From positions 1-64,000 of the forward strand of contig CAITNO010000082.1 of the NCBI GenBank assembly GCA_903893795.1: a stretch of 64,000 nt of DNA. Direction: 5' to 3'. Position 1 is the stretch's first letter. Every line of letters starts with the position of its first letter. The notes beneath the pieces were generated by a model. That model was given only the letters and a program-made list of their open reading frames with translations. It ran no database searches and was not told where the DNA came from. A program made the translations under genes and the position numbers. This document shows positions 1-64,000 of this stretch, one piece after another. Source of the stretch: Candidatus Hydrogenedentota bacterium (GTDB taxonomy: Bacteria > Hydrogenedentota > Hydrogenedentia > Hydrogenedentales > CAITNO01).

Positions 1-3000
1 CCAGTCGTCGTTACTGTCCGGTTGCCCACACAGGCATCCGTGGCCGTTGCGCCCGCATCGGTGTAGGTTGCCTTGCACTGTACCGTGACTGCGGCAGAAC
101 CGGTGAGCGTGATGACCGGCGGGGTCGTATCTGTGACCGTCACCACGCGTGTGACCACGGCTGCGCTGTTGCCGTTACCGTCTGACGCGTTGTAGGCCAA
201 CGTGTAGGTCCCGAGTGCGGATGTGTTGACTGTGCCAGCCGTCGTCACCGTCCGGCTGCCCGCGCAGGTATAGGTGGCCGTTGCGCCCGCATCGGTGTAG
301 GTTGCCTTGCACTGCACCGTGACTGCGGCAGAACCGGTGAGCGTGATGATGGGCGGGGTCGTGTCCGCCACCGTCACCGTGCGCGTGAGCTGTGCCGCAT
401 AGCTTCCATTGCCGTCGTTTGCGCTGTAGGTCAGCATATAGGTTCCGAGTAGGGCCGTGTCCACCGCGCCAGTCGTCGTCACCGCAACACTGCCCATGCA
501 GGCATCCGTCGCCGTCGCGCCCGCATCCGTGTAGGTTGCCTTGCACTGCACCGTGACTGCGGCAGAACCGGTGAGCGTGATGATGGGCGGGGTCGTGTCC
601 ACCACCGTCACCGCGCGCGCAACCTGTACCGCACTGTATCCATTGCCGTCATTCGCATTGTAGCTCAGCGTATAGGTTCCAAGTATGGCCGTGTTCACAG
701 AACCACTCACCGTCACCGGCACGCTCCCCACGCAGGCATCCGTGGCCGTGGCGCCCGCATCTGTGTAGGTGGCCTTGCACTCCACCGTGACCAAGGCAGC
801 ACCGGTGAGCGTGATCACCGGCGCGGTTGTGTCCGCAACCGTCACCCGGCGTGTGGCCTGAAGGGCCGCATTCACCCCGTTGGTGGCGTTGTAGGTCAGC
901 GTGTAGACGCCCGGAACGGCGGTGTTCACCGTGCCGTCCGTTGTCGCCGCCACCTCGCCGGTGCATATATCCATGGCCAGGGCGCCGTTGTCGTAGTAGT
1001 CGCTGCCGCACTCGACGCTGACCGAGGGGTCGCCGAGCACCGTGATGACCGGCGGCGTGGTGTCCGCCACGGTCACCGCGCGCGTCACGGTTGCCGCGCT
1101 GTTACCATGGCCGTCGCTGGCGCTGTAGGTCACCGTATAGGTTCCGGGTGCGGCCGCGTTCACCGTCCCCGTGGCGGTTACGGGCACACTGCCAGCGCAG
1201 CTGTCAGCCGCCGTTGCGCCTGCATCGGCATAGGCATCGCCACATGCCACCGTGACCGCGGCGGAACCGCTGCGTGTGATGACCGGTGCGGTGCTGTCCG
1301 CCACGGTCACCACGCGCGTCACGGTTGCCGCGCTGTTGCCGTGGCCGTCGTTGGCGTTGTAGCCCAGCGTATAGGTTCCAAGTGCGGCCGTGTTCACCGT
1401 TCCCGTGGCCGTCACGGGCACGCTGCCGACGCAGATATCCGTCGCCGTTGCCCCGGCGTCGGTGTAGGGCGTGCCGCATTCGACGGTCACCGTGGCAGCG
1501 CCGTTCAGTGTGATGACCGGCGCGGTGGTGTCTGACACGGTCACGCTGCGGGTGAGTTCGGCGGCACTGTTGCCATGGCCGTCGCTGACGTTGTAGCGAA
1601 CGGTGTAGGTGCCGGGCAGGTTTACGTTGACCGGGTTGATGACGGTGATACCGGCCGTGAGGACGCCCGCGCAGAGGTCGCTGGCGGTGGCGCCCGCGTC
1701 GGTGTAGGGCATGCCGCATTCGGCGGCCGTCTCGGACGGGCCGAGCAATGCCAGCACCGGTACGTCGGTGTCGGTAACATGGACCGTGCGGGTCAGCGGC
1801 GCGGCACTGTTGCCGTGACCGTCGCTGACGCTGTAGCGGACGGTGTAAGTGCCGGGTGTGCCGGTGTCCACCGGGTTGATGACGGTGATGCTGGCCGTCA
1901 GGCTGCCCGCGCAACTGTCGGTGGCCGTCGCGCCCGATTCGGTGTAGCTGTCTTTGCACGCGACGCTGGTTTCGGCAGCGCCGACGAGCGCGAGCACAGG
2001 CGGCGTGGTGTCCACGACCTGAACGGTCCGCGTGACTTCCACGGCATTGTTCCCGTTGCCGTCGCCCACGTTGTAGCGGACGGTGTAGTTGCCGGGCACG
2101 GCCGGGTTCACCGTGTCGCCGCCCACGACGATGCCGGCCGTCAGGCTGCCCGCGCAGGCGTCGGTGGCCGTCGCGCCCGATTCGGTGTAGCTGCCGCCGC
2201 ATTCCACGGTCACCAGGGCCGAACCGTTCAGCGTGATGACCGGGGCCGTCACATCCTGCACCAGCAGCGTGGCCGTGGCAACGCCCTGATAATTGGTGTC
2301 GGCAACCGTGGCCGAAACGGCATAACTGCCCAAGGCGCTGGGCGGGGTGGCCGAGCCGTCATAGGCAATGCCCACCGTCAGCCCGGCGGGAAGGGTGGTC
2401 ACGGTAACCGCTTTGGCCGTGCCGTCGCAGTTTTGAACAAGGTTACCCAGCGTCACCGTGGCTGTCGCCTTGGAAATCGTCAGGCTCGCGCCGAGGTAGG
2501 TGACGGTGTATTTCGCCGGAGCGGTCAGCGTGCCCCGCGTGATGGCGTAGGCACCCACCGTTTCGCCCGCATCGCGGGCCAGCGCTCCGCCCAGCGTGTC
2601 GCCCGGTTCCAGCGCACCGGAAGTAATCTGCCAGGTCAGGGCCGGGTCGGCGCTTCCATAAAGCTTGGTCTGGGCGTCCGCCGTAACCGTAATCAGTACG
2701 GCCGTAAACCACTTGGCGTACAGCGTATGGTCGGCCGGGTTGGTCACCGTCGTTGCGTCCGTCACTTCCGTGCCCGTGCCGCCGGGGCCGGTCCACCATC
2801 CGCCGAAGTTGCTGCCCGCCAGCGCGGGCGTGGGAAGGGTGCCGTAGGGCGTGTTGTAGGCCGCGCTCAGGCTGGCCGGGGACACGGTGCCGCCCTGGGC
2901 GTCCAGGGTCACGGTGCAACTGTCCGGCGCGAAGACCGCCTGGAGGGCGTGGCCGTTGCGGTCCAGGGTCAGGCTCTGGTTGTCGTTCTTCAGGCCCGCG

Positions 3001-4031
3001 TTGAAGGTGCAGGTCGCATTGGTGGCCCCGGCAAGGTCGGCAAAACTGTCCGGGCTCGTGCCCTGAGCGCCAGTCTTGGCCTGCCATTTGACGAAGTGAT
3101 AGCCCGAATCCGCCACGGCCGTGAGATTGACGGCCGCGTTGCGGTCATAGTTGCCGTCGGTCCAGGCGGGACTCTCCGCCGTGGTCCCGTTCTTGAGGGT
3201 TCCGCCCGTGCCCGCCGTTGCGCTTACGCGGTACAACGGTTTGTACGCAGCCGCGCAGATATTCCACCGCCCGGAGATGGACAGGGTGTAGGCCATGGCC
3301 TTGCTGGCCGACGATGCCACATAGAAGACGCCGGTGGAGTATCGCCGGTTGGCCACGCTAATCGAGGTGAAGACGTTCGTCTGGCTGGCGCTGGGCGCCA
3401 GGGTGAGGGTGCCATTGCCGCCGGTGCAGCCGTCCACGACGATGAAGTCGGCGGGGATGGGACCGTTTGAAAGTGTGCCGGTGGACGCGGCCGTGCCCGT
3501 GCCCGCGCCGCTGTTGGCGTTCGCCCCGTAGAGCGTGGCGGAACGCGGGCTGGCCTGGTCAATGTTGCCCAGACAGGTGATGGCCCCCTGTTTCCGGTCG
3601 ATGGCGCTTTGAAAGGTCACCGAAAGCGTGGCGGTTTGGGATACATCTGAATCGCCAATCGCCGCGTAGAACTGTTCCACGCCCAGCCCGTTGGTCGTGC
3701 CGATGGCCAGCAGGGCGCCCTCGGCCTTGGTGAAGGTGATGCCGTTCCAGGTGGGCAGCGTGGTGGTGGACACCAGGGCCAGATTGTAGGTGCCCCCCGA
3801 CGCCTTGTAGGTGGAGGTGGTCAGCACCAGGACCCGGTTGGTTCCGGCCGGCGCCGTGTAGGACCCGGTTTCCGTGGTCCGGGCCGAGTTGCTGGCAAAA
3901 ACCTCCACCGCCGTGCTGGAAAGGGACGGCAGCACCTGCGGCGCCGCATAGGCGGGTGCGGCGGCAAGGGTCAGGAGGCAAATTGCAAAAAACACCCCCG
4001 CCCACACCCTGCCAATCCTTCGCTGTGACAT
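1..4031 (-). CDS. Giant secreted Ig-repeat protein, partial (C-terminus beyond left edge)
   Basis: The visible 1343 codons run from an ATG at 4031 to the window edge in one frame. A good Shine-Dalgarno (AGGAGG) lies about 8 nt upstream of the ATG. Residues 1-30 are a signal peptide (basic start, hydrophobic core, cleavage near AYA/APQ). Next come an unrecognised secreted domain to about residue 265, a Listeria-Bacteroides-type (InlB/Flg_new) repeat region, an MBG-like domain and a YDG-like domain to about residue 600. Ten tandem DUF5011/Cry22-type Ig-like repeats of about 80 residues follow, the last one cut by the edge; each carries a Cys in VTVEC and another in TDxCxG. The first ~600 residues match the neighbouring 7593-aa protein almost segment for segment, so the two are tandem paralogs. 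It probably works on or outside the cell surface; ligand and role are unknown. Confidence 0.85.
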   Translation of the reverse strand, partial: MSQRRIGRVWAGVFFAICLLTLAAAPAYAAPQVLPSLSSTAVEVFASNSARTTETGSYTAPAGTNRVLVLTTSTYKASGGTYNLALVSTTTLPTWNGITFTKAEGALLAIGTTNGLGVEQFYAAIGDSDVSQTATLSVTFQSAIDRKQGAITCLGNIDQASPRSATLYGANANSGAGTGTAASTGTLSNGPIPADFIVVDGCTGGNGTLTLAPSASQTNVFTSISVANRRYSTGVFYVASSASKAMAYTLSISGRWNICAAAYKPLYRVSATAGTGGTLKNGTTAESPAWTDGNYDRNAAVNLTAVADSGYHFVKWQAKTGAQGTSPDSFADLAGATNATCTFNAGLKNDNQSLTLDRNGHALQAVFAPDSCTVTLDAQGGTVSPASLSAAYNTPYGTLPTPALAGSNFGGWWTGPGGTGTEVTDATTVTNPADHTLYAKWFTAVLITVTADAQTKLYGSADPALTWQITSGALEPGDTLGGALARDAGETVGAYAITRGTLTAPAKYTVTYLGASLTISKATATVTLGNLVQNCDGTAKAVTVTTLPAGLTVGIAYDGSATPPSALGSYAVSATVADTNYQGVATATLLVQDVTAPVITLNGSALVTVECGGSYTESGATATDACAGSLTAGIVVGGDTVNPAVPGNYTVRYNVGDGNGNNAVEVTRTVQVVDTTPPVLALVGAAETSVACKDSYTESGATATDSCAGSLTASITVINPVDTGTPGTYTVRYSVSDGHGNSAAPLTRTVHVTDTDVPVLALLGPSETAAECGMPYTDAGATASDLCAGVLTAGITVINPVNVNLPGTYTVRYNVSDGHGNSAAELTRSVTVSDTTAPVITLNGAATVTVECGTPYTDAGATATDICVGSVPVTATGTVNTAALGTYTLGYNANDGHGNSAATVTRVVTVADSTAPVITRSGSAAVTVACGDAYADAGATAADSCAGSVPVTATGTVNAAAPGTYTVTYSASDGHGNSAATVTRAVTVADTTPPVITVLGDPSVSVECGSDYYDNGALAMDICTGEVAATTDGTVNTAVPGVYTLTYNATNGVNAALQATRRVTVADTTAPVITLTGAALVTVECKATYTDAGATATDACVGSVPVTVSGSVNTAILGTYTLSYNANDGNGYSAVQVARAVTVVDTTPPIITLTGSAAVTVQCKATYTDAGATATDACMGSVAVTTTGAVDTALLGTYMLTYSANDGNGSYAAQLTRTVTVADTTPPIITLTGSAAVTVQCKATYTDAGATATYTCAGSRTVTTAGTVNTSALGTYTLAYNASDGNGNSAAVVTRVVTVTDTTPPVITLTGSAAVTVQCKATYTDAGATATDACVGNRTVTTT

Positions 4032-4059
4032 AACCTCGCCCTCCTGTCCGGACAGCCCC

Positions 4060-4078
4060 GCCGGGAGCAACTCCCGGC
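4060..4078 (-). promoter_or_regulatory. Leader hairpin of the left giant gene
   Basis: GCCGGGAG and CTCCCGGC form a perfect 8-bp inverted repeat around a 3-nt loop, between the proposed promoter and the ribosome binding site. A short palindrome TGTCCGGACA follows toward the start codon. The paralogous giant gene has a hairpin of different sequence in the same place, which suggests that structure rather than sequence is kept. It may stabilise the mRNA 5' end; that role is inferred. Confidence 0.5.
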
Positions 4079-4123
4079 TAACAGACCCACACCGCGCGCA
4101 ATAGCACCTAGTCCTATGTATAA

Positions 4124-4152
4124 AGTCTACAAAAGAACTGGGCTTTTGTCAA
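4124..4152 (-). promoter_or_regulatory. Sigma70-type promoter of the left giant gene
   Basis: On the minus strand there is a consensus -35 TTGACA (4147-4152), a 17-bp spacer and a -10 TAGACT (4124-4129). Initiation near 4117 would give a leader of about 85 nt. The upstream giant paralog has the same hexamers with the same spacing, which supports the call. Confidence 0.6.
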
Positions 4153-4250
4153 TGAATTCGTTGCATCGCTCAGGTTCCGGTTCCCCTCGTTGCCAGGCTG
4201 CACTTGGCAATGCCGGTGTTCCTGAAGCGGTGCTTCGTCCCCGGCACGGT

Positions 4251-4301
4251 GTGGCTCGGGCGTTCCGCCCGTGAGGACCATGGGCAGGATGCCCATGCCA
4301 C
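4251..4301. repeat. Compact double-hairpin palindromic element
   Basis: An outer GTGG/CCAC pairing encloses two hairpins: CGGGCG-ttc-CGCCCG (4257-4271) and CATGGGCA-gga-TGCCCATG (4279-4297). This has the form of a small three-way junction on either strand. It lies between the two giant genes with no plausible coding sequence, and looks like a dispersed REP-type intergenic element. No transposase is visible nearby. Confidence 0.5.
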
Positions 4302-4374
4302 GGGAAAAGCAGCGGCATGGCCACCGCAGTCAAGAAGGGATTTCCCGGAGCGAAGCGCAGCTTCGAAGACAATT

Positions 4375-4490
4375 GCGTCCCCAAGTTCAACTTGGGAACG
4401 AGGAGGAGAAGACAGGTGCGTTCCCAAGTCCAACTTGGGAACGAGGAGGAGAAGACAAGTGCGTCCCCAAGTACAACTTGGGAACGAGGG
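4375..4490. repeat. Three tandem 43-bp units with a 17-bp palindrome
   Basis: The palindrome core CCCAAGTTCAACTTGGG occurs at 4380-4396, with centre variants at 4423-4439 (TCC) and 4466-4482 (TAC); the starts are exactly 43 bp apart. Each core is followed by GAACGAGG and purine-rich sequence; copies 1 and 2 share the longer GAACGAGGAGGAGAAGACA. Only the centre of the palindrome varies while both arms are kept. This is a REP-like intergenic repeat, not a gene. Three copies at this period, with the palindrome in every unit, do not fit a CRISPR. Confidence 0.7.
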
Positions 4491-4511
4491 GGAACGGGGG
4501 GAAAGAAAGAG

Positions 4512-4548
4512 CGACCGGATGTCCTGCCGGGGGCAGGGCATCCGGTCG
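4512..4548 (-). terminator. Hairpin terminator after the 7593-aa gene
   Basis: A 17-bp stem (arms 4512-4528 and 4532-4548, one G-T wobble) with a 3-nt loop starts 21 bp past the stop codon. On the minus strand it is followed by CTCTTTCTTTCC, a broken T-rich tract. It should end transcription of the giant gene before its paralog. The T tract is weak, so it could instead be another REP-like palindrome. Confidence 0.6.
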
Positions 4549-4569
4549 GAAGGAAGACTGATGCGGTTG

Positions 4570-27351
<22,782 letters not shown>

Positions 27352-27390
27352 GGACGCGCCCTCCTACCAAGACCGTTTCAATACAGCCGC

Positions 27391-27408
27391 GCGGGGAAAG
27401 TTCCCCGC
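27391..27408 (-). promoter_or_regulatory. Leader hairpin of the 7593-aa gene
   Basis: GCGGGGAA and TTCCCCGC face each other across two bases between the promoter and the ribosome binding site. It occupies the same place as the 4060-4078 hairpin of the paralog, and both are followed on the minus strand by a G/C-rich step ending GGCTGT. Confidence 0.5.
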
Positions 27409-27458
27409 AATAAAATGAAGAATAGAGCAAGCTCCCTGCTTGTCTAACAGCCAGTGAC

Positions 27459-27487
27459 AGTCTATAACCAACAAAGCTGTGTGTCAA
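27459..27487 (-). promoter_or_regulatory. Sigma70-type promoter of the 7593-aa gene
   Basis: Minus strand: -35 TTGACA (27482-27487), 17-bp spacer, -10 TAGACT (27459-27464). This would give a leader of about 100 nt before the ATG at 27351. Hexamers and spacing equal those of the downstream paralog although the spacers differ. Confidence 0.6.
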
Positions 27488-28446: not shown

Positions 28447-29192
28447 TATTGGGGAGTGTTCGATGGGGGCGGGAGGGCTCGGCAGAGTTCGCGGGCTTTT
28501 GACGCCTCGTCGCCCGAGGCCCCGCCCAGCAGAAACAGTTGCAGGTGCCGCCGCGCTTCCGCGAAGTCTCCCGCATTCGCGCACAGCGTGGCTATGCGGT
28601 ATTCGGCAAGCCCTCCCGGAACGAGTGCCGTGCATTCATCGTAGGCCTCCCGCGCGCCCTCCACATCCCCCCGATACTGCGCAACGCGCCCGGTGCTGTA
28701 CAGCATGTCCGCCTGCTTGAGCGGGTCAGTCGTTACTTCTGGCGCTTCACGCCAATGCCGCACCACCGAAGCCGCCTCATCCCCGCGCCGCAGGTGCAGC
28801 AACGCCTCCACCAGCACGCCCGCCCCCTTGAAGCGGGGGGTGCTTCCCGAGACCGACGCGGACAGTGTTTCCACGGCGTCCTTCATTTGGCCCTGCTCCC
28901 ACAGCAGCAGGCCCTTTGCGGCCAGGGTTCGGCTTTTGTCCGGCGGATAATCGAAACCGGCGTCCAGCGCCCGGTTGTACAGGGCCAGCGCCTTTTCCGC
29001 TTCCCCGGCCCGGCTCATCCATTCCGCCTCGATGACGAACAGGCGCGACACCGCATTGTCCACCTGTTGTAGCAGGATACCGCCATGCCGCCCATAAGCC
29101 ACCGCGGCGGCGGTGATGAAAAGCACGCCCGCAAGGGCAAGAAGGCTGGCCCAAAGGCACAGGCCGCGCATCATGCTGTTTTCGCCGTTCAT
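28446..29192 (-). CDS. Membrane-anchored TPR protein
   Basis: 248 aa from an ATG at 29192 that overlaps the TGA of the upstream gene by 4 nt (ATGA), so translation is probably coupled. Residues 9-30 form one membrane segment. The rest is helical with TPR-like units (AEKALALYNRALDAG, GDVEGAREAYDECTALVPGG, GDFAEARRHLQLFLLGG). A longer frame starting at 29363 lies inside the upstream gene and is unlikely. It probably assists the partner O-antigen-ligase-type protein on the periplasmic side; this is inferred from linkage. Confidence 0.75.
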   Translation of the reverse strand: MNGENSMMRGLCLWASLLALAGVLFITAAAVAYGRHGGILLQQVDNAVSRLFVIEAEWMSRAGEAEKALALYNRALDAGFDYPPDKSRTLAAKGLLLWEQGQMKDAVETLSASVSGSTPRFKGAGVLVEALLHLRRGDEAASVVRHWREAPEVTTDPLKQADMLYSTGRVAQYRGDVEGAREAYDECTALVPGGLAEYRIATLCANAGDFAEARRHLQLFLLGGASGDEASKARELCRALPPPSNTPQ

Positions 29193-32131
29193 GGCGCGGC
29201 CTCCGGTGGGGAAGCCTGCATCCTCCGCAGCACGCGGGCATACTCCTCGCCGACCCGCGCATACTCGGGCCGGTTCTTCGGAATCTGCTGAAGCAGCATC
29301 TTGTACACGAACTGGGCCTCCCGGTCCATGCCCGCATCGGCCAGTTGCCGGGCGAGATTCCATTGCACATCGGCCCGGCCCGGCGCGGTTTGCACCGCCG
29401 CACGTGCTGCGGCAAGCGCCTCATCCCTCCGGGAGAGCTGGCTCAGCGCCTGGGACCGAAGCACCTGAAGCGACGCCTGGGCATCCGGTTCCAGGGCGGG
29501 CAATGCCTCCGCACAGGCGGTTTCCGTTTCGGACCACAGTTCCGCCGCGCTGTACACGCGCGCGCATGCCGCCAGAACCCCCGCCGTATCGCCCGCTGTC
29601 GCGCCGGACCGGACAGCCAGTTCCTTCAGCAGCGGCAGCGCCCAGACGAATTCGCGACCAACACGGTCTTTCGGGCTGGTCCCGCCCAGATTGCCTGCCT
29701 TGTCGGCGAACATCCCGGCAATCTGCAGCACGACGGACGCACCGAGTGGCGGGTCGGAACAAAGCGCATCCACCAGGGCCGGGGCAAAGACTTCAGGCTT
29801 TCCGCCAATCAACTGGGCCCGTTCGGAACAAATCAACGCAGACAATCCCGTTCCGCCTTCGGGGGTTTCCGCAAGCAACCCCCATGCGCCGGGCTCACCC
29901 GGAGCGATTTGGATGACCTCCCGCGCCACGGCCAGCGGCATGCCCGGACAATCAGCATACAGGCGTGTCAGCCACCATCCCGCCAACAGGAAGGCCGGAT
30001 GGCCGGCTTGGTCTTTCTTAAGCGTTCCATAGGCGCGGGAAACCGCATCCAGCAAGGACGGGTACTGTTGCGCGTCCTGCCGGAATGAATCCAGGAGCGT
30101 CCAGGTCTCCGGGGCCGAAGGGGCCTGGTCCAGCGCGCGGCCGAGATAACCGGCCGCATCGTTCCGTTCTTCACATCGCAACGCCGTGCGCGCCAGGGTG
30201 CGATACGCCGGGGCCGCATCGGCCACGCCGCATTCGAGCGCCCTGTGGGCCTCCTCCACGGCCTGCCTTTCCTGCGGCTTGTCATCCGACCCCGTCTGCC
30301 GCGCCATTTCGGCGCGCAGGTCCGCAATGCGCCACAGGGCGTCATGGGGCGCGGCCAATTGTGGACAGAATGCGCGGGACCGATCCGCGGCGACCTCGGC
30401 CCGTTTCAACAGGAAAGCCGCACCCGGCCAATCACCTTTCCCGGCCCGTTCAGCGGCCAGGCCGTGCAGTGCCCGGGCCAAATAGGCATAGAGGTTCGGA
30501 TTGGCCGGACATTTCGCCAGCGCCCCCTGAAAAGCCTCTTCCGCCGCCGCGAAATGTCCTGCGGCCAGACAGGCGCGTCCCAGAAACTCGGGGAAACGCG
30601 GGTCGAGGGGGAAGTTCCTGCGGTCCGTCAGGGCATGCTGCAGCAGGGTGTTCTTCAGTGCATAAAACTTTGCGTTGCCCGGCGATGGTGAGCCCATTTC
30701 GGTCTGCATGCCCTGGTCTTCCAGGGCCGCCGTGTCGGCGCGAAAACGCATCAGTGTTGCGGCCAGCAAGACAACGGTCAGCAGCAGCACGCACAGTCTC
30801 CCGGCGAACAGGGCAGAGGGCCTGCGTTCCGGAGCGGGGGGGAGGGTGCGCCCGATCAGCCCGTCGAGCATACCAAGGAGCACAAAGAAGAAACAGGCAG
30901 ACACGGGCACGTGCAGGTTAAATCCGAAGAGTCCGTCCACGCCCATGGCAAACACGCACAGGGCGGTCACCAAGCCGAAGCGTTTCAGGTCCGGCGTGGC
31001 CCCGTCCCGCGCAAGCCGCAGGCCTGCCAGCAGCGCCCAGGAGAAGAGCAGCAGATGCAGCAGCATCCCCGGAAGACCGCCCTCGGCCCCCGCCTCCAGG
31101 GGTTCGCAGTGCACATGGTCATTTCTCAGCCCGCGCTGCGCATACCAGCGCGCCTCAAAGGGGTTCCAACTTCCGGCCACCAGACGCTCGTAGTTGCCCG
31201 GTCCTATTCCTGTCAGCGGGTGTTCGAGCAGCATGTGCGAGGCACCGTAGGCGCTGTTGTAGCGCAGTCCCAGCGAACTGTCGGTGATGGGCAGCCAGGT
31301 GCCATGGGTGCGGTGGTAGGCTGAAAGGCCCAAACCCAGCGCCGCGCTCCCCGCCATCAGGGTGAGCAGCAGCGCAACGGGAATTCTCCCCGGACGGGAA
31401 CCCAGCATGCGCCCAGAAAGACGCCAGGCGCAATAAAGGGTTGCCGCCGCCGCCAGGGCCAGGGGCCCGCCGCGCATGCCGGTGTACCACAGGTGAACCG
31501 CCATGATGAGCACGGCGGCAAGGGTCAGCATGCGGTGACGGGGCCGCGTGGCCAGTGCAAGCCCGAGCAGGATGCCCGGTACGAGCGCATGGCCCGCGAA
31601 ATTGGGATTTCCAAAGGTGGACGGCAGGCCCAGATATTCCACAGTCGTCGTCGAGGACCAGGGGAAGGGGTCCAGGCCCAGATGCTGCGCGAGCCCGTAG
31701 AGGCTGGCCGCGCACAATGCGCCCACCATCACCGCCGCCAGCCGCCAGGCCTGTTCGGCCTGCACAAAAGTCCGGCGCGCCGCCAGCGCGGCCAGCACCC
31801 ACAGGGCAGGCAGGGCAAGCGACCAAAGGCTGTTTTCAGGGAGCGAAGAGTTCAACGCGCAGAAAAGCTGCCAGCCCAGCCACAACGCAAACAGCGTGCG
31901 CAGCCCTGCGCCTCTGCCAATACAGCCGGCAGGAATGCCGGCGCTCCCAGTGCGGCCAAAGAAGGCCAGCACCGCGCAACACAGGACCAGCACGGCCGTG
32001 ACCACCAGTTTGGGCGGTTCGCAGGGATTGAGCGTGTAGGGCCACAGTGCCAGCACAAAGAGCGGCACCCAGCCGTAGAACAAGGCGCGCTCAAGCATCC
32101 GCGCCCGATTGTCTGCAAAGCTTTCCATCAC
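29189..32131 (-). CDS. O-antigen ligase family protein with C-terminal TPR domain
   Basis: 980 aa. The first ~440 residues are polytopic (about ten to twelve hydrophobic segments) and include a Wzy_C-like region: SAYGASHMLLEHPLTGIGPGN, then a loop with NDHVHCEPLEAGAEGG resembling the H-N-E loop of WaaL/Wzy-type ligases. Residues ~450-980 are TPR repeats (CLAAGHFAAAEEAFQGALAKCP and others). The family transfers or polymerises polysaccharide on lipid carriers, or glycosylates proteins, at the periplasmic face. The start is GTG at 32131 or ATG at 32128, with no clear Shine-Dalgarno. It is divergent from the TerB-like gene. No other polysaccharide genes are adjacent. Confidence 0.8.
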   Translation of the reverse strand: MMESFADNRARMLERALFYGWVPLFVLALWPYTLNPCEPPKLVVTAVLVLCCAVLAFFGRTGSAGIPAGCIGRGAGLRTLFALWLGWQLFCALNSSLPENSLWSLALPALWVLAALAARRTFVQAEQAWRLAAVMVGALCAASLYGLAQHLGLDPFPWSSTTTVEYLGLPSTFGNPNFAGHALVPGILLGLALATRPRHRMLTLAAVLIMAVHLWYTGMRGGPLALAAAATLYCAWRLSGRMLGSRPGRIPVALLLTLMAGSAALGLGLSAYHRTHGTWLPITDSSLGLRYNSAYGASHMLLEHPLTGIGPGNYERLVAGSWNPFEARWYAQRGLRNDHVHCEPLEAGAEGGLPGMLLHLLLFSWALLAGLRLARDGATPDLKRFGLVTALCVFAMGVDGLFGFNLHVPVSACFFFVLLGMLDGLIGRTLPPAPERRPSALFAGRLCVLLLTVVLLAATLMRFRADTAALEDQGMQTEMGSPSPGNAKFYALKNTLLQHALTDRRNFPLDPRFPEFLGRACLAAGHFAAAEEAFQGALAKCPANPNLYAYLARALHGLAAERAGKGDWPGAAFLLKRAEVAADRSRAFCPQLAAPHDALWRIADLRAEMARQTGSDDKPQERQAVEEAHRALECGVADAAPAYRTLARTALRCEERNDAAGYLGRALDQAPSAPETWTLLDSFRQDAQQYPSLLDAVSRAYGTLKKDQAGHPAFLLAGWWLTRLYADCPGMPLAVAREVIQIAPGEPGAWGLLAETPEGGTGLSALICSERAQLIGGKPEVFAPALVDALCSDPPLGASVVLQIAGMFADKAGNLGGTSPKDRVGREFVWALPLLKELAVRSGATAGDTAGVLAACARVYSAAELWSETETACAEALPALEPDAQASLQVLRSQALSQLSRRDEALAAARAAVQTAPGRADVQWNLARQLADAGMDREAQFVYKMLLQQIPKNRPEYARVGEEYARVLRRMQASPPEAAP

Positions 32132-32308
32132 GCCGGTGATTGTCGCATTACTGTCACCGCGCCCTCAAGCCTCGGAAAGAAAACAGCCCATGCCGCATGA
32201 ATCGCCCCGCCCTGGAATGGTATGATCGCACCACAAGCCGAGAAAAGTGGTGGGGCGCGACGTCTTTCACCGCGGCACGCAGCAACCGAAGAGAAGGCAA
32301 CAAAGAAC

Positions 32309-32728
32309 ATGATTGACCGCCTGAACCGCGACGAACGCCTGGCCATGATGGAACTGCTGTGGTACCTTGCCAAGACCGACGGCAAGGTGCCCGAAGTTTA
32401 TAATGAACTGCTTCGAGAGTATGCCGAACTGCTGGAAGTGGACCCATCGGATATCGACGGCGAACTTACCCCCGAAGAGCTAGTTCCGCAATTCCAGAAT
32501 CCCGCCAGCCGCGTGGTCGTGCTGCAGGAAGTCTTCCGCTTGGCCCAGTTGGACGGCATCTTCACCATTGGCGAGGAATCGGTTATTCTGGACATCGCCT
32601 CGCTCATGGGTTTCCCCATGGAATTTGTCCAGCGCGTCGAGCAATGGGTGATCGACGGCATCGAATGGACGCTGAACGGCGAAAAACTCATCGACGAGAG
32701 CACACACCTCGTGCTGCGCAAGCACTAA
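32309..32728 (+). CDS. TerB-like helical protein
   Basis: 139 aa from the ATG at 32309, which begins the conserved part (MIDRLNRDERLAMMELLWYLAKTDGKV); an upstream in-frame ATG would add 29 residues with no family look. Two related helical halves carry AKTDGKV and AQLDGIFTIGEE, the acidic turn pattern of TerB/DjlA-type domains. Such domains are small, cytoplasmic and of unclear biochemistry, often linked to stress or membrane processes. It stands alone upstream of murC. Confidence 0.7.
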   Translation: MIDRLNRDERLAMMELLWYLAKTDGKVPEVYNELLREYAELLEVDPSDIDGELTPEELVPQFQNPASRVVVLQEVFRLAQLDGIFTIGEESVILDIASLMGFPMEFVQRVEQWVIDGIEWTLNGEKLIDESTHLVLRKH

Positions 32729-32840
32729 CAAAGCTGTCCCACCTTTCCGTTATGTCTTTCCACTGCCAATCGCGGTTCTGGATGCTCTGAATCGGTCGAA
32801 AACGGGCTGTTTTGCATGCTTTTTTCCCGTCCAGATCCGC

Positions 32841-32869
32841 TTTTTATTGTGGCCCGGTTGTGGTATACT
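32841..32869 (+). promoter_or_regulatory. Probable extended -10 promoter for murC-ftsQ-ftsZ
   Basis: TATACT at 32864-32869 is preceded by TGG, giving an extended -10. The -35 region (TTTTTA, 17 bp upstream) is poor. Start of transcription near 32876 would leave a leader of about 30 nt before the TTG start codon. Confidence 0.45.
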
Positions 32870-32907
32870 CTTCCCCATACACAAGATGTTGCGTTTGGAG
32901 GTGTGTT

Positions 32908-34347
32908 TTGAACGGGCTGAAGCGCAAGGTACACTTCGTCGGCGTGGGCGGTATCGGCATGAGCGGTCTGGCCGAAATCCTGCTCAATCTCGGCTATGAC
33001 GTTTCCGGTTCCGATGCCAAGGCATCGGACATTACGGAGCGGCTGGAGAGCTGTGGACTGCGTTTCCACGAGGGGCACGAGGCGGCGAACATTGGCGAAG
33101 CCGACATTCTCGTGGTCAGCGCCGCCATCCCGCAGGACAATCCTGAAGCCGAGGCGGCCCGGCACCGCGGCACGCCGGTCATCCACCGCAGCGACCTGCT
33201 GGCCGACCTGATGCGGCTCAAGCCGCACGCGGTGGCGGTGGGGGGGACTCACGGAAAAACCACCACCACGTCGATGATCAGCGCGATCATGGACGTGGCC
33301 AACATCGGCGCAACGAGCATTGTCGGCGGCATCCTGCACCGCAGCGGCACCAACGCGCGATGGGGCACGGGCGACTACCTGGTGGCCGAGGCCGACGAGC
33401 ACGACGGCTCTTTCCTGCGGCTCCATCCGAGCATTGCGGTGGTCACCAACATCGATGCGGAGCATCTCGAATACTACGGGACGGTGGACCGCATCAAGCG
33501 CGCCTTCACCGACTTTTGCAACGGCATTCCCTTCTACGGCTACAGCATCGTCTGCGGCGATGATCCGAACACGCTGGACATCGTCAAGGATATCGAAAGC
33601 GTCTGCATCACCTACGGACTCGGAGAGGGCAGGTCCATCCAGGGCCGGAACATCAGCATCGTTCCCGGTGTGTCGGGCGGTTCCAGATCGGCCCAATTGG
33701 CATCGATGCGCACCCGCTTCGAGGTGGTTTGTCATGACGAGCGGTTGCACACTTCGGGCCTGCTGGGCACCGCCGAAATCAACGCGGTGGGCGCGCACAA
33801 CGTGCTGAACGCGCTGGCGGCCTGCGCGGTGGGTCTGTGCCTGGGCATGCGCTTCAGCCGCATCACCGATGGCCTGCGCCTTTTTGACGGTGTGCGCAGG
33901 CGGTTGCAGGTGTGCGGCGAGGTGCGCGGCGCGCTGGTTATCGAGGACTACGCCCACCATCCCACCGAAATCGCGAGCACGCTCGAGGCGATACGCTGGA
34001 TTCAGCCGCGCCGCGTGATTGGCGTGTTCCAGCCCCACCTCTACAGCCGGACCAAGTTCTTCTGCGATGATTTCGCGCGGGTCCTGGCGGGCATGGACCG
34101 GGCCATTGTGACGGATATTTACCCCTCGCGCGAGGCGCCCATGCCCGGCGTGGACTCGGGAATCATTGTTGACGCCGCGCGCCGCGCGGGCGCGGCCCAG
34201 GTGGAACTGGTGGGCGACATGGACGCCGTGCCCGCCTATCTTGCCCCCTCTCTGGAGCCGGGCGACGTGGTGCTTATTCTGGGTGCAGGCAATATCAACC
34301 GCATTGCGGGGCCTCTGCTGGCACAGATGGAGGCGCTGGGGTCATGA
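32908..34347 (+). CDS. murC: UDP-N-acetylmuramate--L-alanine ligase
   Basis: 479 aa. Adds L-Ala to UDP-MurNAc in the cytoplasm, the first peptide step of peptidoglycan synthesis. Seen: N-terminal Rossmann motif VHFVGVGGIGMSGLAEIL, ATP loop GGTHGKTTTT at about residues 111-120, EADEHDGSF, a YAHHPTEI motif in the C-terminal domain and a LGAGNI end. The start is TTG at 32908 with GGAGG 6 nt upstream; the next in-frame ATG upstream lies before the proposed promoter and adds non-homologous residues. The stop TGA overlaps the ftsQ start (ATGA). It heads a murC-ftsQ-ftsZ division cluster. Confidence 0.95.
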   Translation: MNGLKRKVHFVGVGGIGMSGLAEILLNLGYDVSGSDAKASDITERLESCGLRFHEGHEAANIGEADILVVSAAIPQDNPEAEAARHRGTPVIHRSDLLADLMRLKPHAVAVGGTHGKTTTTSMISAIMDVANIGATSIVGGILHRSGTNARWGTGDYLVAEADEHDGSFLRLHPSIAVVTNIDAEHLEYYGTVDRIKRAFTDFCNGIPFYGYSIVCGDDPNTLDIVKDIESVCITYGLGEGRSIQGRNISIVPGVSGGSRSAQLASMRTRFEVVCHDERLHTSGLLGTAEINAVGAHNVLNALAACAVGLCLGMRFSRITDGLRLFDGVRRRLQVCGEVRGALVIEDYAHHPTEIASTLEAIRWIQPRRVIGVFQPHLYSRTKFFCDDFARVLAGMDRAIVTDIYPSREAPMPGVDSGIIVDAARRAGAAQVELVGDMDAVPAYLAPSLEPGDVVLILGAGNINRIAGPLLAQMEALGS

Positions 34348-35138
34348 TGGCGTCAGACCGGGCCACAGACACAAAGGGCAAGCCGCGCACGTTGAAACGG
34401 AAGCCGGGCAAGGCTTTCTGGGGCGGTTGGACCGAGTGGACCATCAGCGTGGCCGTTATACTTGTTCTGGCTTTCGGAACGTACAAGTATGTCATATGGC
34501 CCAACACGCTGCAGGTAAAGCGGGTGCTTTTCCAGGGCAACAAAGTGCTTACGGATCAGCAGATTCTGGAAGCCGCGCAAATCACCGAGTCCGACACCAT
34601 TTTTTCCGTAAAGCGGGAAGTTGTGCGTCAGCGCGTGCTGGAGCTGCCCTATGTGAGGGAATGCACGGTTTCCATTGCCTCCTCCGCCATCATTATCCAG
34701 GTTGTCGAGCGCGTTCCCGTGGCGGCGCTGATGGTCAACAATCGTCTGTACGAGGTCGATCGGGGAGGCATGGTGCTGCGCTTGGTGCCGCCGCTTGCAC
34801 AGCCCAATGGTCCCATGGTGACCAATCTGCCCGATTTGAGCGCGGTCACGCCGGGGCAGCGGGTCGACAATCCGACGCTGGAGCAGGCCTTTCTCCTTTG
34901 GGACGCTTTTTCCGCCGACCTGGTGTCGAAGGAACTCACCCTGTCCGAGATTTCTGCCCAGAGTGAGAACACGCTCTACATGTTCTTTGAAGAACTGCCC
35001 TTCGACACGCGATGGGGTCGCTCCGATTTTCCCACGCAGGTGCACCGCTTCAACCTGCTTTGGCGTGAAAAAGGCGGAAAACTTCCCTGCACCGAATTTA
35101 TCGACATGCGTTTTAACAACAACATCGTCTGCAAATAG
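34344..35138 (+). CDS. ftsQ: Cell division protein FtsQ/DivIB
   Basis: 264 aa, single-pass inner-membrane division protein that links early and late divisome parts. There is a short basic cytoplasmic N-terminus, a membrane segment at about residues 31-52, a POTRA-type region (LQVKRVLFQGNKVLTDQQILEAAQI) and the FtsQ beta domain with VVERVPVAALMVNNRLYEVDRGG. The C-terminus is well diverged. The start overlaps the murC stop; TGGAGG sits 10 nt upstream. The place between murC and ftsZ supports the assignment. Confidence 0.88.
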   Translation: MMASDRATDTKGKPRTLKRKPGKAFWGGWTEWTISVAVILVLAFGTYKYVIWPNTLQVKRVLFQGNKVLTDQQILEAAQITESDTIFSVKREVVRQRVLELPYVRECTVSIASSAIIIQVVERVPVAALMVNNRLYEVDRGGMVLRLVPPLAQPNGPMVTNLPDLSAVTPGQRVDNPTLEQAFLLWDAFSADLVSKELTLSEISAQSENTLYMFFEELPFDTRWGRSDFPTQVHRFNLLWREKGGKLPCTEFIDMRFNNNIVCK

Positions 35139-35206
35139 GCGCAAACCACGAGCAGGAACGGGGCGCGGCCGACCGCGGCGCGACGCACGTTCCAAGGAGA
35201 CGCAGC

Positions 35207-36541
35207 ATGACACCGACTGACGGCCAGGACCAGGAATTCTCGACTTTTGACCAAAAAGCCGTGTTGAAAGTCTGCGGCGTGGGCGGCGGCGGCGGCAACG
35301 CCGTGGACCGGATGATCGAGGCCCAGATGGGCGGCGTGCAGTTTATCGCCATCAACACGGACGCGCAGGCGCTCAAGAAATCCAAGGCGGAGATCCGTCT
35401 CCAGATAGGCTCCAGTCTCAGCAACGGCCTGGGTGCGGGCGCGCGGCCTGAAGTCGGCTGCCAGGCCTGCGAGGAGGACCGCGACAAGGTGCGCGAAGTG
35501 CTTCGCGGCGCCAATCTCGTTTTCCTGACCGCCGGCCTCGGCGGCGGCACCGGCACCGGTGCGGCCCCGATTGTCGCGGAAGAAGCGGGCGCGGGCGGCG
35601 CGCTCACGGTCGCCATCGTTACGCTCCCCTTCAGTTTCGAGGGTCAGGAGCGCATGGAGAACGCGTTGCGGGGGCTGGATGAACTGCGCAAACATGTGGA
35701 CACGCTCATTGTCGTGCCCAATGACCGCATCGCCGAACTGGCCCACACCAACACCTCGCTGCTGGACGCCTTCCGCCACGGAGACGAGGTGCTGCACAAC
35801 GGTGTGCGCGCCATTTCCGAACTGATCACGCTGCCCGGCCTGATTAATGTGGACTTTGCGGACGTTAAAACGATCATGCAGTCCAAGGGACGCGCGTTGA
35901 TGGGCATCGGCATCGCCCAGGGCGAAGACCGCGCCGTGCGTGCCGCGCGCGAGGCCATCGACTGCCCGCTTCTGGAACAGTCCGACATCCACGGCGCCAG
36001 GGGCGTCATCGTCAATGTGCGCGGTGGGTCGGACATCCGCATGCGCGAAGTGCAGGACGCCATCAACTATGTCAAGCGCAACGCCAGCCCGGACGCCAAC
36101 ATCATTTGGGGCGTCGCGCCTGAGACTGAGGTGCGCGACGATTTCCAGGTCACCGTCATTGCCGCCGGCTTCCCGAACCGCGATGTGGAAGAGTACAGAA
36201 ACAAATCGCAGTCCGCGGCGCTCGATGATCTGCTCGATGCAGAACAATCCTCCGCCCCTGTTCCGGCCGCGCCCGTCCCGGCCCCGGCAAGGGTCGAAGC
36301 CGCGCCGCCCAAGCAGGAAGTCCCGGTGGCAGCCGCGCCAAGGCAGCCCGAAGCGGCTCCCGCGCCTGCCCCCCCAAAACCGGCCCCAAAAGCGCCGCAG
36401 CCGCCTGTCAAGGCACCGCAGCAGTTGGACCTGCCCAACGGCAAGGGCGGTTTTACCACGGTCTTTTCCTCAGGGGCCACCCCGGAGGAAGATGACATGC
36501 GCATCCCGGCCTACATGCGGCAGCAGCCCAAGAAGCAGTAG
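35207..36541 (+). CDS. ftsZ: Cell division protein FtsZ
   Basis: 444 aa tubulin homolog that forms the division ring. Seen: GVGGGGGNAVDRM, the tubulin signature GGGTGTG at about residues 111-117, the T7 loop (GLINVDFADVKTIM), a Pro/Ala-rich linker of about 90 residues (350-435) and a conserved-type C-terminal peptide DDMRIPAYMRQQ. AAGGAG lies 7 nt before the ATG, 68 nt after ftsQ. No ftsA lies between ftsQ and ftsZ, so membrane attachment of the ring must use FtsA from elsewhere or another anchor. Confidence 0.97.
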   Translation: MTPTDGQDQEFSTFDQKAVLKVCGVGGGGGNAVDRMIEAQMGGVQFIAINTDAQALKKSKAEIRLQIGSSLSNGLGAGARPEVGCQACEEDRDKVREVLRGANLVFLTAGLGGGTGTGAAPIVAEEAGAGGALTVAIVTLPFSFEGQERMENALRGLDELRKHVDTLIVVPNDRIAELAHTNTSLLDAFRHGDEVLHNGVRAISELITLPGLINVDFADVKTIMQSKGRALMGIGIAQGEDRAVRAAREAIDCPLLEQSDIHGARGVIVNVRGGSDIRMREVQDAINYVKRNASPDANIIWGVAPETEVRDDFQVTVIAAGFPNRDVEEYRNKSQSAALDDLLDAEQSSAPVPAAPVPAPARVEAAPPKQEVPVAAAPRQPEAAPAPAPPKPAPKAPQPPVKAPQQLDLPNGKGGFTTVFSSGATPEEDDMRIPAYMRQQPKKQ

Positions 36542-51298: not shown

Positions 51299-51321
51299 GA
51301 TACGGTAATTAGACTTAAGAG

Positions 51322-51435
51322 CAACCTTCAGGGCAGGGTGAAATTCCTGACCGGCGGTGACAGCCCGCGAGCGTGAAAACGCAGATTCTGGTGGAATTCC
51401 AGGGCCGACGGTAGAGTCCGGATGAAAGAAGGTTG
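51322..51435 (+). promoter_or_regulatory. FMN riboswitch (RFN element)
   Basis: The closing helix CAACCTTC/GAAGGTTG brackets the conserved RFN core: AGGGCAGGGTGAAATTCC, GACCGGCGGTGACAGCCCGC, GGTGGAATTCCAGGGCCGAC, GGTAGAGTCCGGATGAAAG. FMN binding should favour termination of the riboflavin-biosynthesis transcript. Downstream, ACCTGCG/CGCAGGT (51446-51469) and GGTGCGGT/ACCGCACC (51467-51488) overlap and cannot both form, and a terminator follows at 51536. Confidence 0.96.
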
Positions 51436-51535
51436 AACGGTTTTGACCTGCGGCAGTGTTTTCGCAGGTGCGGTTTTGGGACCGCACCGTGGGGGAACAC
51501 GCATGAGGGAGGACCGTTCCAAATCAGTTGTTGCG

Positions 51536-53714: not shown

Positions 53715-54944
53715 ATGTTGACACCGATACCTGAGATTCTGGAAGAACTGCGGCAGGGTCGCATGATTATTCTGGTGGACGATGAGGACCGCGAAAACGA
53801 GGGCGATATCGCCGTCGCGGCGGAATTTGTCACCCCCGAACTGATCAACTTTATGGCCATCCACGCGCGGGGCTTGATCTGCATGCCCATGGAGGAGGAC
53901 CGGATAAAACATCTCGACCTTCCGCCGATGGTCGCCGAAAACACCTCGCGTCTGAACACCGCGTTTCATGTGACCTTCGAGGCGAAGGAAGGCGTGACCA
54001 CCGGCATCAGCGCCCATGACCGGGCGCACACGATTCGTGTCGCCGCGGCGCCCGATGCGCATGCGGACCAGTTGGTGCGGCCGGGCCATGTGTTTCCGCT
54101 TTGCGCACGCAAGGGCGGCGTGCTGGTGCGGGCGGGTCAGACCGAGGGATCGGTGGATTTGGCGAAGATTGCCGGACTCACCCCATGCACGGTGATCTGC
54201 GAGATCATGAAGGACGATGGAAGCATGGCGCGCATGCCGGACCTGGAGGTGTTTGCAAAGCAGCACGACCTCAAGATATGCGCGATTTGCGATATCATTG
54301 AATACCGGCGCAAAACGGAGAAACTGGTGCGCCGTGCGGCGCAGGTTAATCTGCCAACGGAATACGGTGACTTCCGGCTTATCGCCTACGAAAACGACAT
54401 AGACGACTACCAGCACATGGCCTTGGTGAAGGGGGAGGTGGCGGGACTCGAAGACGCGCTGGTGCGGGTGCATTCGGAGTGTTTCACCGGCGACATCCTC
54501 GGCTCATTGCGTTGCGACTGCGGCAAGCAGCTTCATGCGGCGATGGCGGCTATCCAGGAAGAGGGCCGGGGCGTGGTGCTATATTTGCGCCAGGAAGGGC
54601 GCGGTATCGGGTTGATCAACAAGCTGCGCGCCTATGAATTGCAGGAGAAGGGTATGGACACGGTTGAGGCCAATCTCCACCTCGGTTTCGATCCCGACCC
54701 GCGGGAGTACGGGATCGGCGCGCAAATCCTGTATGATCTCGGCGTCAAAGGCATGCGGCTGATGACGAACAATCCTGTCAAACGCGCCGGCATTGAGGGT
54801 TACGGCCTCAAGGTCACGGGTCGTGTGCCCATCGAAATTCAGGCAAACAGGCACAACCAAGCCTATCTCCAGACGAAGAAGGACAAATTCGGACACCTCA
54901 TTGCGGATACAGAAACCGGGTTGACTAACAAGGAGGACAAGTGA
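53715..54944 (+). CDS. ribBA: DHBP synthase / GTP cyclohydrolase II fusion
   Basis: 409 aa. The N-terminal RibB half (1-200) has [22 protein letters not shown] and [13 protein letters not shown]; the C-terminal RibA half has [21 protein letters not shown] (zinc Cys) and [10 protein letters not shown]. It supplies both riboflavin precursors, dihydroxybutanone phosphate and the GTP-derived pyrimidine. One oddity: the RibB motif commonly written RxGHTE reads [12 protein letters not shown] here (codon CAG), replacing a His that binds metal in E. coli RibB. AAGGAG precedes the ATG; the stop overlaps ribH. Confidence 0.95.
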
Positions 54945-63137: not shown

Positions 63138-64000
63138 CTAGCATTTTCGTCGCCGTATAAAAGATACACCGCCCAACCCAAGGGCAGCGGCGGCTGTTGC
63201 CAAAACGGCCAGGCCCGCCAGCGGCACGGGCGGGTCGGGTGTTGCCACGGTGAAGATGGGTCCGTCGATGGAGGTCACGGCGTCGGACACGGCGCACACG
63301 TACTGGCCCGCCGAGTCTGCCGTCACCGGGCCTATCACCAGCGTGGCGTCCGTGGCGCCGGGAATTGGGTTATAGACCTTCCCGCCCGGCGTGGCCCCCT
63401 CTTTCCGCCACTGGAAACTCAGTTCGCCCACCGCGCCCGTCACGGTGACGGAGAGTTCCACCTGGTCGCCCATCCTGCTGTGCACCAGCGTGTCCCCCGC
63501 GGCATCCACGGCCAGGGTGCAGTTGTCCCTCACCGTCACCGTGCGCGACACGGTGTCGGCCCGGTTGCCCGAACCGTCAACCACGTCGTAGCTTACAGTC
63601 CAGTTCCCGGGGCCGAGTGGCCCGGCCGGGGGCAGGCCGGACAGGGCAATATTGCCCGTGAGGTCCCCCGAGCAGGCGTCCAGGGCGGTTGCGCCCGCAT
63701 CGTTGTATGCCTGGCCGCAGTCCAGCACGACCGCGGACGATCCAAGCAGCGTGATGACGGGTATGACGGTGTCCACCACGGCAACCGTGCGGCTGGCAAA
63801 GCCGGTGTTGGTGCCGTCGCTGACGCTGTAGGTTGCGTGGTGCGTTCCGGGCGCGGCCGTGTCCACGTCGCCCCCAAATTGGATGCCTGCCGTCAGGTCG
63901 CCCGCGCAGGCATCCATCGCCGTTGCGCCGGGAACCGTGTAGGTTCCTCCGCACTCCACCGTCATTGAGGCTTCACCCGTCAGGGTGATGACCGGTGTGC
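63138..64000 (-). CDS. DUF5011-repeat surface protein, C-terminal part (starts beyond right edge)
   Basis: The visible 287 codons enter from the right edge in one frame and stop at 63138. At least two full DUF5011-type Ig-like repeats and the end of a third are seen (TVECGGTYTVPGATAMDACAG, AVVLDCGQAYNDAGATALDACSG), with the same two-Cys pattern as the giant proteins at the left. Then comes an Ig domain (LVHSRMGDQVELSVTVTGAVGELSFQWRK ... DSAGQYVCAVSD). The tail VPLAGLAVLATAAAALGLGG plus FIRRRKC is a PEP-CTERM-like membrane anchor: Pro motif, hydrophobic helix, basic end. No exosortase is in the window. Confidence 0.85.
   Translation of the reverse strand, partial: TPVITLTGEASMTVECGGTYTVPGATAMDACAGDLTAGIQFGGDVDTAAPGTHHATYSVSDGTNTGFASRTVAVVDTVIPVITLLGSSAVVLDCGQAYNDAGATALDACSGDLTGNIALSGLPPAGPLGPGNWTVSYDVVDGSGNRADTVSRTVTVRDNCTLAVDAAGDTLVHSRMGDQVELSVTVTGAVGELSFQWRKEGATPGGKVYNPIPGATDATLVIGPVTADSAGQYVCAVSDAVTSIDGPIFTVATPDPPVPLAGLAVLATAAAALGLGGVSFIRRRKC

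What the first reader, a model, noticed from the sequence alone, without database searches (positions are those of the whole stretch)
1..27351. Tandem paralogous giant secreted proteins with a shared N-terminal module
Two adjacent minus-strand genes share the same signal peptide/unknown-domain/InlB-MBG-YDG opening of about 600 residues and then diverge into different repeat arrays. The complete one is 7593 residues, among the largest bacterial proteins. The shared opening is unrecognised and may be the functional attachment or export module.
Basis: partly seen in the sequence, partly recalled or inferred. Interest (0 to 1): 0.7.

Follow-up and report, generated by a model that had tools for sequence, protein, structure and literature searches.

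The report
Duplicated giant modular surface protein genes
Two neighbouring bacterial genes make very large exported proteins that start with the same undescribed domain and continue as long chains of immunoglobulin-like, kelch and other repeats; they are old duplicates in a genome full of such giants, most likely surface adhesins of a known general kind with a new lineage-specific head domain.

Summary
The 7593-residue gene (4570-27351, minus) is one intact frame. Its neighbour starts at ATG 4031 and is cut by the contig end at base 1, so its length is unknown. After the signal peptides the two align without gaps for 567 residues (80% amino acid, 79% DNA identity; dN/dS about 0.11 in the head). 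They are old, selected paralogues with matching promoters and leader hairpins, not a misassembly. The opening is an unrecognised 235-residue domain, InlB-like, Flg_new, MBG_2 and MBG_3; there is no YDG. Both then enter the same kind of array (Bact_surface_Ig-like), no longer in register. The head domain hits no Pfam, PHROG or PDB profile. It recurs in the genome on a gene of at least 8238 residues and on a gene of about 1.45 thousand residues with an exosortase-type tail. It is patchy in one family (8 of 17 genomes) and absent from the other 51 genomes of the phylum. Export is explained by ordinary signal peptides, and other giants here lack the head, so 'export module' is not supported. Most likely these are Sec-exported surface or matrix adhesins with a conserved head and fast-evolving stalks. 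Structure prediction failed; head function is inferred.

The parts
4570..27351 (-). Giant gene 1 (P0001), 7593 residues
   Evidence: One open frame with coding-type third-position G+C
3..4031 (-). Giant gene 2 (P0002), start ATG 4031, cut by the contig end at base 1; at least 1343 residues
   Evidence: the contig end has no exact partner elsewhere in the genome
27202..27351 (-). Gene 1 signal peptide (residues 1-50, long n-region)
   Evidence: Hydropathy peak at residue 32; homology to gene 2 starts right after it
26497..27201 (-). Gene 1 head domain (residues 51-285), unrecognised
   Evidence: No Pfam, PHROG or PDB hit; 83% identical to gene 2; relatives in 8 of 17 family genomes
26182..26496 (-). 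Gene 1 InlB-like repeat (Flg_new_2 type)
   Evidence: Repeat model hit at residues 290-355; Pfam Flg_new_2 family hit in the half-protein
25969..26175 (-). Gene 1 Flg_new (Listeria-Bacteroides repeat)
   Evidence: Pfam PF09479, 41.9 bits
25738..25950 (-). Gene 1 MBG_2 domain
   Evidence: Pfam PF18676, 58.8 bits
25513..25719 (-). Gene 1 MBG_3 domain
   Evidence: Pfam PF18887, 71.3 bits
23593..25500 (-). Gene 1 first Ig-like array, 8 units
   Evidence: PF16403; unit model
20983..23562 (-). Gene 1 first kelch block, 12 units of about 73 residues
   Evidence: Pfam kelch families; unit model
19522..20964 (-). Gene 1 second Ig-like array with a HYR unit
18352..19254 (-). Gene 1 first glycine-rich region
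   Evidence: 100-residue windows with at least 40% Gly; approximate limits
16858..17538 (-). Gene 1 InlB-like unit and 2 Ig-like units
15538..16830 (-). Gene 1 second kelch block, 6 units
14110..15525 (-). Gene 1 third Ig-like array, 6 units
12592..13554 (-). Gene 1 second glycine-rich region
   Evidence: approximate limits
10582..11625 (-). Gene 1 late Ig-like units (3)
8929..9534 (-). Gene 1 three InlB-like units
   Evidence: PF18998
7165..7992 (-). Gene 1 three TIG domains
   Evidence: PF01833
4582..5745 (-). Gene 1 four C-terminal Kre9/KNH-like domains; the protein ends a few residues after the last
   Evidence: PF10342; unit model
3240..3944 (-). Gene 2 head domain
   Evidence: 83% identity to gene 1 head
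2256..3233 (-). Gene 2 InlB-like, Flg_new, MBG_2, MBG_3
   Evidence: Pfam
3..2243 (-). Gene 2 Ig-like array, at least 10 units, cut by the contig end; last part is a 234-base tandem DNA repeat
27459..27487 (-). Promoter-like site of gene 1, TTGACA-17-TAGACT
   Evidence: same two hexamers and spacing as gene 2
4124..4152 (-). Promoter-like site of gene 2, TTGACA-17-TAGACT
   Evidence: 0.1 such sites expected by shuffling
27390..27409 (-). 8-bp hairpin in the gene 1 untranslated leader
   Evidence: RNA fold; no Rfam match
4060..4078 (-). 8-bp hairpin in the gene 2 untranslated leader, different stem letters
   Evidence: RNA fold
4376..4486 (-). Two terminator-like hairpins between the genes, in a 43-base tandem repeat

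Best explanation
The two genes are old tandem duplicates that encode giant Sec-exported modular proteins. Each is transcribed from its own promoter. After signal-peptide cleavage (inferred) the mature N-terminus is a 235-residue head domain of an undescribed, lineage-specific family. It is carried on a short base of InlB-like and MBG domains and then on a long flexible stalk of Ig-like, kelch, glycine-rich, InlB-like and TIG modules. In gene 1 the protein ends in four Kre9/KNH-like domains. I think they act as surface or matrix adhesins: the head and the kelch propellers meet ligands (glycans, other cells or matrix), the stalk gives reach, and the C-terminal Kre9/KNH-like domains hold the protein in the matrix or envelope. 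Shorter relatives with the same head are held by an exosortase-processed C-terminal tail instead. Selection keeps the opening while the arrays turn over by unequal recombination. Shown: gene structure, homology, selection on the opening, loss of register in the arrays, the two C-terminal classes. Inferred: export, surface location, ligand binding, anchoring.
For: Intact frames and coding statistics. Opening 80% identical with dN/dS about 0.11 in the head. Array units not positionally conserved. Own promoters, and leader hairpins with different letters but the same stem length. Extracellular-type domains: Ig-like, kelch, TIG, InlB-like, HYR. 150 Ig-like units scored (a lower bound) in many large frames of this genome. 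The head recurs on a frame of at least 8238 residues and on a short tailed protein. In relatives it lies just after a signal-peptide-like start in several shorter proteins, mostly with InlB-like or Ig-like domains and the tail. An exosortase gene and about 24 tailed frames are in the genome.
Against: No structure for the head: AlphaFold2 on the two window copies gave mean pLDDT 32. No ligand-binding or enzyme family was recognised in the head. No direct evidence for the route across the outer membrane. The head was not detected in the two same-genus genomes, so it is probably dispensable. Gene 2 beyond residue 1343 is unknown.
Confidence: 0.62

Rival explanations
1. The shared opening is an export or anchoring module: it docks the protein to an unknown secretion or surface machine, which is why it is conserved while the arrays vary.
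For: Conserved N-terminal position right after the signal peptide in the window copies and in most relatives whose start could be read, with low dN/dS.
Against: Other giants of the same genome have signal-peptide-like starts without it. It is found in only 8 of 17 family genomes while many large tailed proteins exist without it. The Sec signal and the exosortase tail already supply export and anchoring signals.
Confidence: 0.12
2. The giants are secreted degradative or predatory proteins of the sort proposed for Omnitrophota giants, acting on polymers or on other bacterial cells.
For: Size and kelch, TIG and Ig-like content; giant reading frames are linked with predation in other phyla (PMC10066038, PMC12057145).
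Against: No convincing catalytic family was found in gene 1 or gene 2 in Pfam or NCBIfam, and there are no arrays of membrane helices, unlike the 42 helices of the Velamenicoccus giant.
Confidence: 0.12
3. The proteins form a structural cell coat or extracellular matrix fibre and bind no specific ligand; the head is a polymerisation or capping domain.
For: Many paralogues per genome, repetitive and low-charge composition, two glycine-rich stretches, Kre9/KNH-like ends.
Against: Kelch propellers and patchy head distribution suggest more specific roles; no S-layer domain was recognised.
Confidence: 0.12
4. The two copies are a misassembly of one gene.
For: Contig ends in this genome often fall inside these repeats, and gene 2 is cut at a contig end.
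Against: 21% DNA difference over the opening, dS 0.79 in the head, separate promoters, a complete stop and two terminator-like hairpins between the genes.
Confidence: 0.02

Closest known systems
Giant1-5 extracellular proteins of Apilactobacillus kunkeei (PMC12863079)
   Same: Consecutive genes for 3000-8000-residue extracellular proteins with a Sec signal peptide, a conserved N-terminal domain read as an adhesin head, and long internal repeats; duplication and recombination.
   Different: Gram-positive; the N-terminal domain is a beta-solenoid and the C-terminus DUF5776/SH3b-like; internal repeats of Giant1-3 are alpha-helical. Here the head is unrelated by annotation and the stalk is Ig-like, kelch and TIG.
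Bacterial surface Ig-like (PF16403; DUF5011 by recollection) and LapB-repeat proteins
   Same: The main repeat unit of both genes is PF16403, far over its cut-off; NF033932 LapB repeats also match.
   Different: Much longer; no LPXTG signal; combined with kelch, TIG, glycine-rich and Kre9/KNH-like domains.
Giant open reading frames of Omnitrophota (PMC10066038)
   Same: Giant reading frames longer than 20 kb with presumed extracellular adhesion roles.
   Different: Those often hold multiple transmembrane helices and few recognised domains; gene 1 here is largely assigned to known extracellular modules and has no helix arrays.
PEP-CTERM/IPTL-CTERM proteins with exosortase
   Same: Several relatives in the genome end in P-V-A-G-L, a hydrophobic stretch and R-R-R-K, and an XrtH-like exosortase is present.
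   Different: Gene 1 lacks the tail; the tail scores below the IPTL-CTERM cut-off (13.1 and 11.6 bits, cut-off 20.5), so it is at best an unnamed relative.

Membership tests
PF16403 Bact_surface_Ig-like proteins | Repeated Ig-like units over the Pfam cut-off | tested here: met
   813, 424 and 454 bits against cut-off 27; 25 and 10 units by own model
Exosortase substrates (PEP-CTERM or IPTL-CTERM) | C-terminal signature, hydrophobic stretch, basic end | tested here: not met
   Gene 1 ends in a Kre9/KNH-like domain, no C-terminal hydrophobic stretch; gene 2 is cut. The contig 56 paralogue has such a tail but scores below the named model
Type I secreted RTX/LapA-type adhesins | No N-terminal signal peptide; C-terminal RTX repeats | tested here: not met
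   Signal-peptide-like N-terminus and no RTX family in Pfam or NCBIfam
Autotransporters | C-terminal beta-barrel domain | tested here: not met
   No autotransporter family in the C-terminal half
Type IX secretion substrates | C-terminal T9SS sorting domain | tested here: not met
   No sorting-domain family on the C-terminal half; secretion machine not searched
Sortase-anchored LPXTG proteins | C-terminal LPXTG, hydrophobic stretch, basic end | tested here: not met
   Gene 1 C-terminus read directly; no NCBIfam hit
A. kunkeei Giant proteins | N-terminal beta-solenoid head | tested here: inconclusive
   Structure prediction of the head failed; no sequence family hit
A. kunkeei Giant proteins | C-terminal DUF5776 domains | tested here: not met
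   Not among the Pfam hits of the C-terminal half
Omnitrophota giant proteins | Predicted transmembrane helices along the chain | tested here: not met
   Only the signal peptide stands out; three marginal hydropathy peaks (1.65-1.71) in 7593 residues

The most novel reading that the evidence does not exclude
The 235-residue head is a new domain family that one bacterial lineage moves as a cassette between very different bodies: short exosortase-tailed proteins and untailed giants of 7600 to over 8200 residues. Support: the contig 37 giant and the contig 56 short protein are almost identical in the last part of the head and the first InlB-like domain (one mismatch in the first 200 bases compared) and diverge within about 330 bases, as after recent recombination. 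Giants and anchored short proteins would then display the same binding specificity at different distances from the cell.
Probability: 0.3. Interest if true: 0.5.

Novelty: new member of a known kind. Interest (0 to 1): 0.36.

Why it matters
It adds a clear case of lineage-specific gigantism outside the best-known groups. One genome carries several frames of 3000 to over 8000 residues built from the same modules, with two alternative C-terminal classes and a conserved new head domain. If the head is a binding domain, the family offers a natural set of the same head on stalks of very different length, and a test of why bacteria build giant surface proteins.

Tried and rejected
Misassembly of one gene: rejected on 21% DNA divergence and separate control regions. 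YDG domain in the opening: not found. Fold of the head by AlphaFold2 from the two window copies: no confident residue, so no fold search was run; relatives fetched by the genome search are not on that tool's list of accepted sources and were not sent. Relatives of the head in viral contigs, named genome contigs and plasmids: none convincing; the three Bacteroidales hits match only 23-35 residues of the query, in or next to its InlB-like part. The rest of gene 2 by overlap of the contig end: no exact partner. Rfam elements in the leaders: none. Conserved synteny with the G004 relative: only murC/mpl-type genes match, at 31%, so not taken as synteny. Co-occurrence of tail and exosortase over the phylum: uninformative because 60 of 68 genomes have an exosortase. 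The organism was not identified by any test; that it may be a Hydrogenedentota lineage is recollection from general features only.

Full report
What is there. The window is the first 64 kb of contig 82 (94.8 kb) of a 7.0 Mb draft genome in 159 contigs, 88% complete. The gene at 4570-27351 (minus) is one frame of 7593 residues; third-position G+C stays at 0.76-0.85 along its length and the other frames hold 42-298 stops. The neighbour is open at the contig end; its likely start is ATG 4031, after a GGAGG-type ribosome site, and not the mechanical TTG at 4070. Its last 141 bases match nothing else exactly in the genome, so its remainder is missing from the bin.

Homology of the pair. From 'APQVLP', just after each signal peptide, 567 residues align without a gap at 79.7% (DNA 78.8%); third positions are only 60% identical. 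dN and dS are 0.089 and 0.79 for the head domain and 0.117 and 0.81 for the whole opening. Identity is 35-45 of every 50 residues as far as the block starting at residue 551. Beyond about residue 617 both proteins run into Ig-like units, but equal positions are no more alike (56%) than any pair (55%) and slightly less than units of one protein (58%). The opening is under selection; the arrays have turned over. Each gene has the same promoter-like hexamers with the same spacing, TTGACA-17-TAGACT, at similar distance from its start, and an 8-bp hairpin in the leader whose letters differ but whose stem length is kept. Two terminator-like hairpins separate the genes. This excludes a misassembly of one gene for practical purposes.

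Domain map. Pfam gives, for the opening, Flg_new_2 and Flg_new (InlB-like), MBG_2 and MBG_3 and nothing for residues 51-285. Gene 1 then holds 8 Ig-like units, 12 kelch units, 6 Ig/HYR units, a glycine-rich region, an InlB-like and 2 Ig-like units, 6 kelch units, 6 Ig-like units, a second glycine-rich region, 3 Ig-like units, 3 InlB-like units, 3 TIG domains and 4 Kre9/KNH-like domains, ending a few residues after the last. YDG is absent.

The head domain. It has no hit at all for the window copy in Pfam or PHROGs, none for the profile in PDB sequences, and only scattered chance-level hits for single relatives. In the own genome it recurs at the ends of contigs 134, 56 and 37. Contigs 134 and 56 overlap by exactly 141 bases, which looks like an assembly word, so they may form one gene of about 1.45 thousand residues that ends in a sorting-type tail; the contig 37 frame is at least 8238 residues. 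Contigs 56 and 37 differ at one base in the first 200 compared, are 93.5% identical over 369 bases, then diverge: recent duplication or recombination of this part. In the phylum-level search of 68 genomes a profile finds the head in 8, all in the same family of 17 and none in the 51 others; it was not detected in the two same-genus genomes. The relatives are shorter proteins (frames of 335 to 871 residues among the best matches), several with InlB-like repeats, Ig-like units and the same tail. An AlphaFold2 run on the two window copies failed (mean pLDDT 32), so the fold is open.

A genome of giants. PF16403 alone gives 150 scored matches in the genome (the number scored, so a lower bound) in frames of 8238, 7597, 5408, 4076, 3832, 3490, 3240 and 2132 residues and smaller. 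Those whose start could be read have signal-peptide-like starts but other N-terminal sequences. C-termini fall in two classes: Kre9/KNH-like domains (gene 1, contigs 37, 20, 106) and a tail with P-V-A-G-L, a hydrophobic stretch and R-R-R-K (contigs 56, 75, 109, 12 and the 3490-residue gene at 63141-73610). A model of the tail finds about 24 frames near E 0.001 or better in this genome and matches in 29 of 68 genomes at E 1e-6. The genome has one exosortase, closest to XrtH (77.9 bits, cut-off 86; general exosortase model 59.5, cut-off 23), and two tails resemble IPTL-CTERM below its cut-off; that XrtH pairs with IPTL-CTERM is recollection. Exosortases are in 60 of 68 genomes, so co-occurrence gives no test. 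Kre9/KNH-like domains were found in no other genome of the family, although most of those assemblies are more fragmented.

Reading. The most economical account is a duplicated pair of Sec-exported giant adhesin-like proteins with a conserved head and fast-changing stalk. The export or attachment role proposed for the shared opening is not supported: signal peptides and, in relatives, C-terminal tails already provide these, and other giants lack the head. The closest published analogue by architecture is the row of Giant1-5 genes of Apilactobacillus kunkeei, with a conserved N-terminal adhesin-like domain and long repeats (PMC12863079), though their domains are different. Omnitrophota giants (PMC10066038) share the size, not the anatomy.

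Weight. The kind is known; the head domain is an undescribed family restricted, as far as searched, to one bacterial family. I rate this a new member of a known kind with moderate-to-low interest; the head cassette on both giants and short anchored proteins is the part worth following.

Noticed in passing
window 63138-64000 (continues to contig 82:73610): C-terminus of a further giant frame of 3490 residues starting outside the window, with kelch-like units near its start, Ig-like units and an exosortase-type tail.
   Followed up: partly
L058:4307-5329 (contig 11): The only exosortase found in this genome, XrtH-like; the likely processor of the unnamed PVAGL-hydrophobic-RRRK tail found on about 24 frames.
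   Followed up: partly
L021 right end against L019 right end (contigs 37 and 56): Nearly identical end of the head domain on a giant and on a short tailed protein, diverging sharply after about 330 bases: sign of recent recombination.
   Followed up: partly
L044 and L045 left ends (contigs 32 and 158): Two giant frames (at least 5408 and 3832 residues) break off at the same C-terminal peptide, so their assemblies end in one shared repeat.
   Followed up: no
window 4365-4493: Three tandem copies of a 43-base unit, each a palindromic CCCAAGTT-AACTTGGG hairpin, between the two giant genes.
   Followed up: no
window 51320-51437: FMN riboswitch (113.7 bits) upstream of a ribB/ribA gene at 53715.
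   Followed up: no
window 29189-36541: O-antigen-ligase-like/TPR protein followed by murC and ftsZ: the giant pair lies beside a division and cell-wall gene cluster.
   Followed up: no
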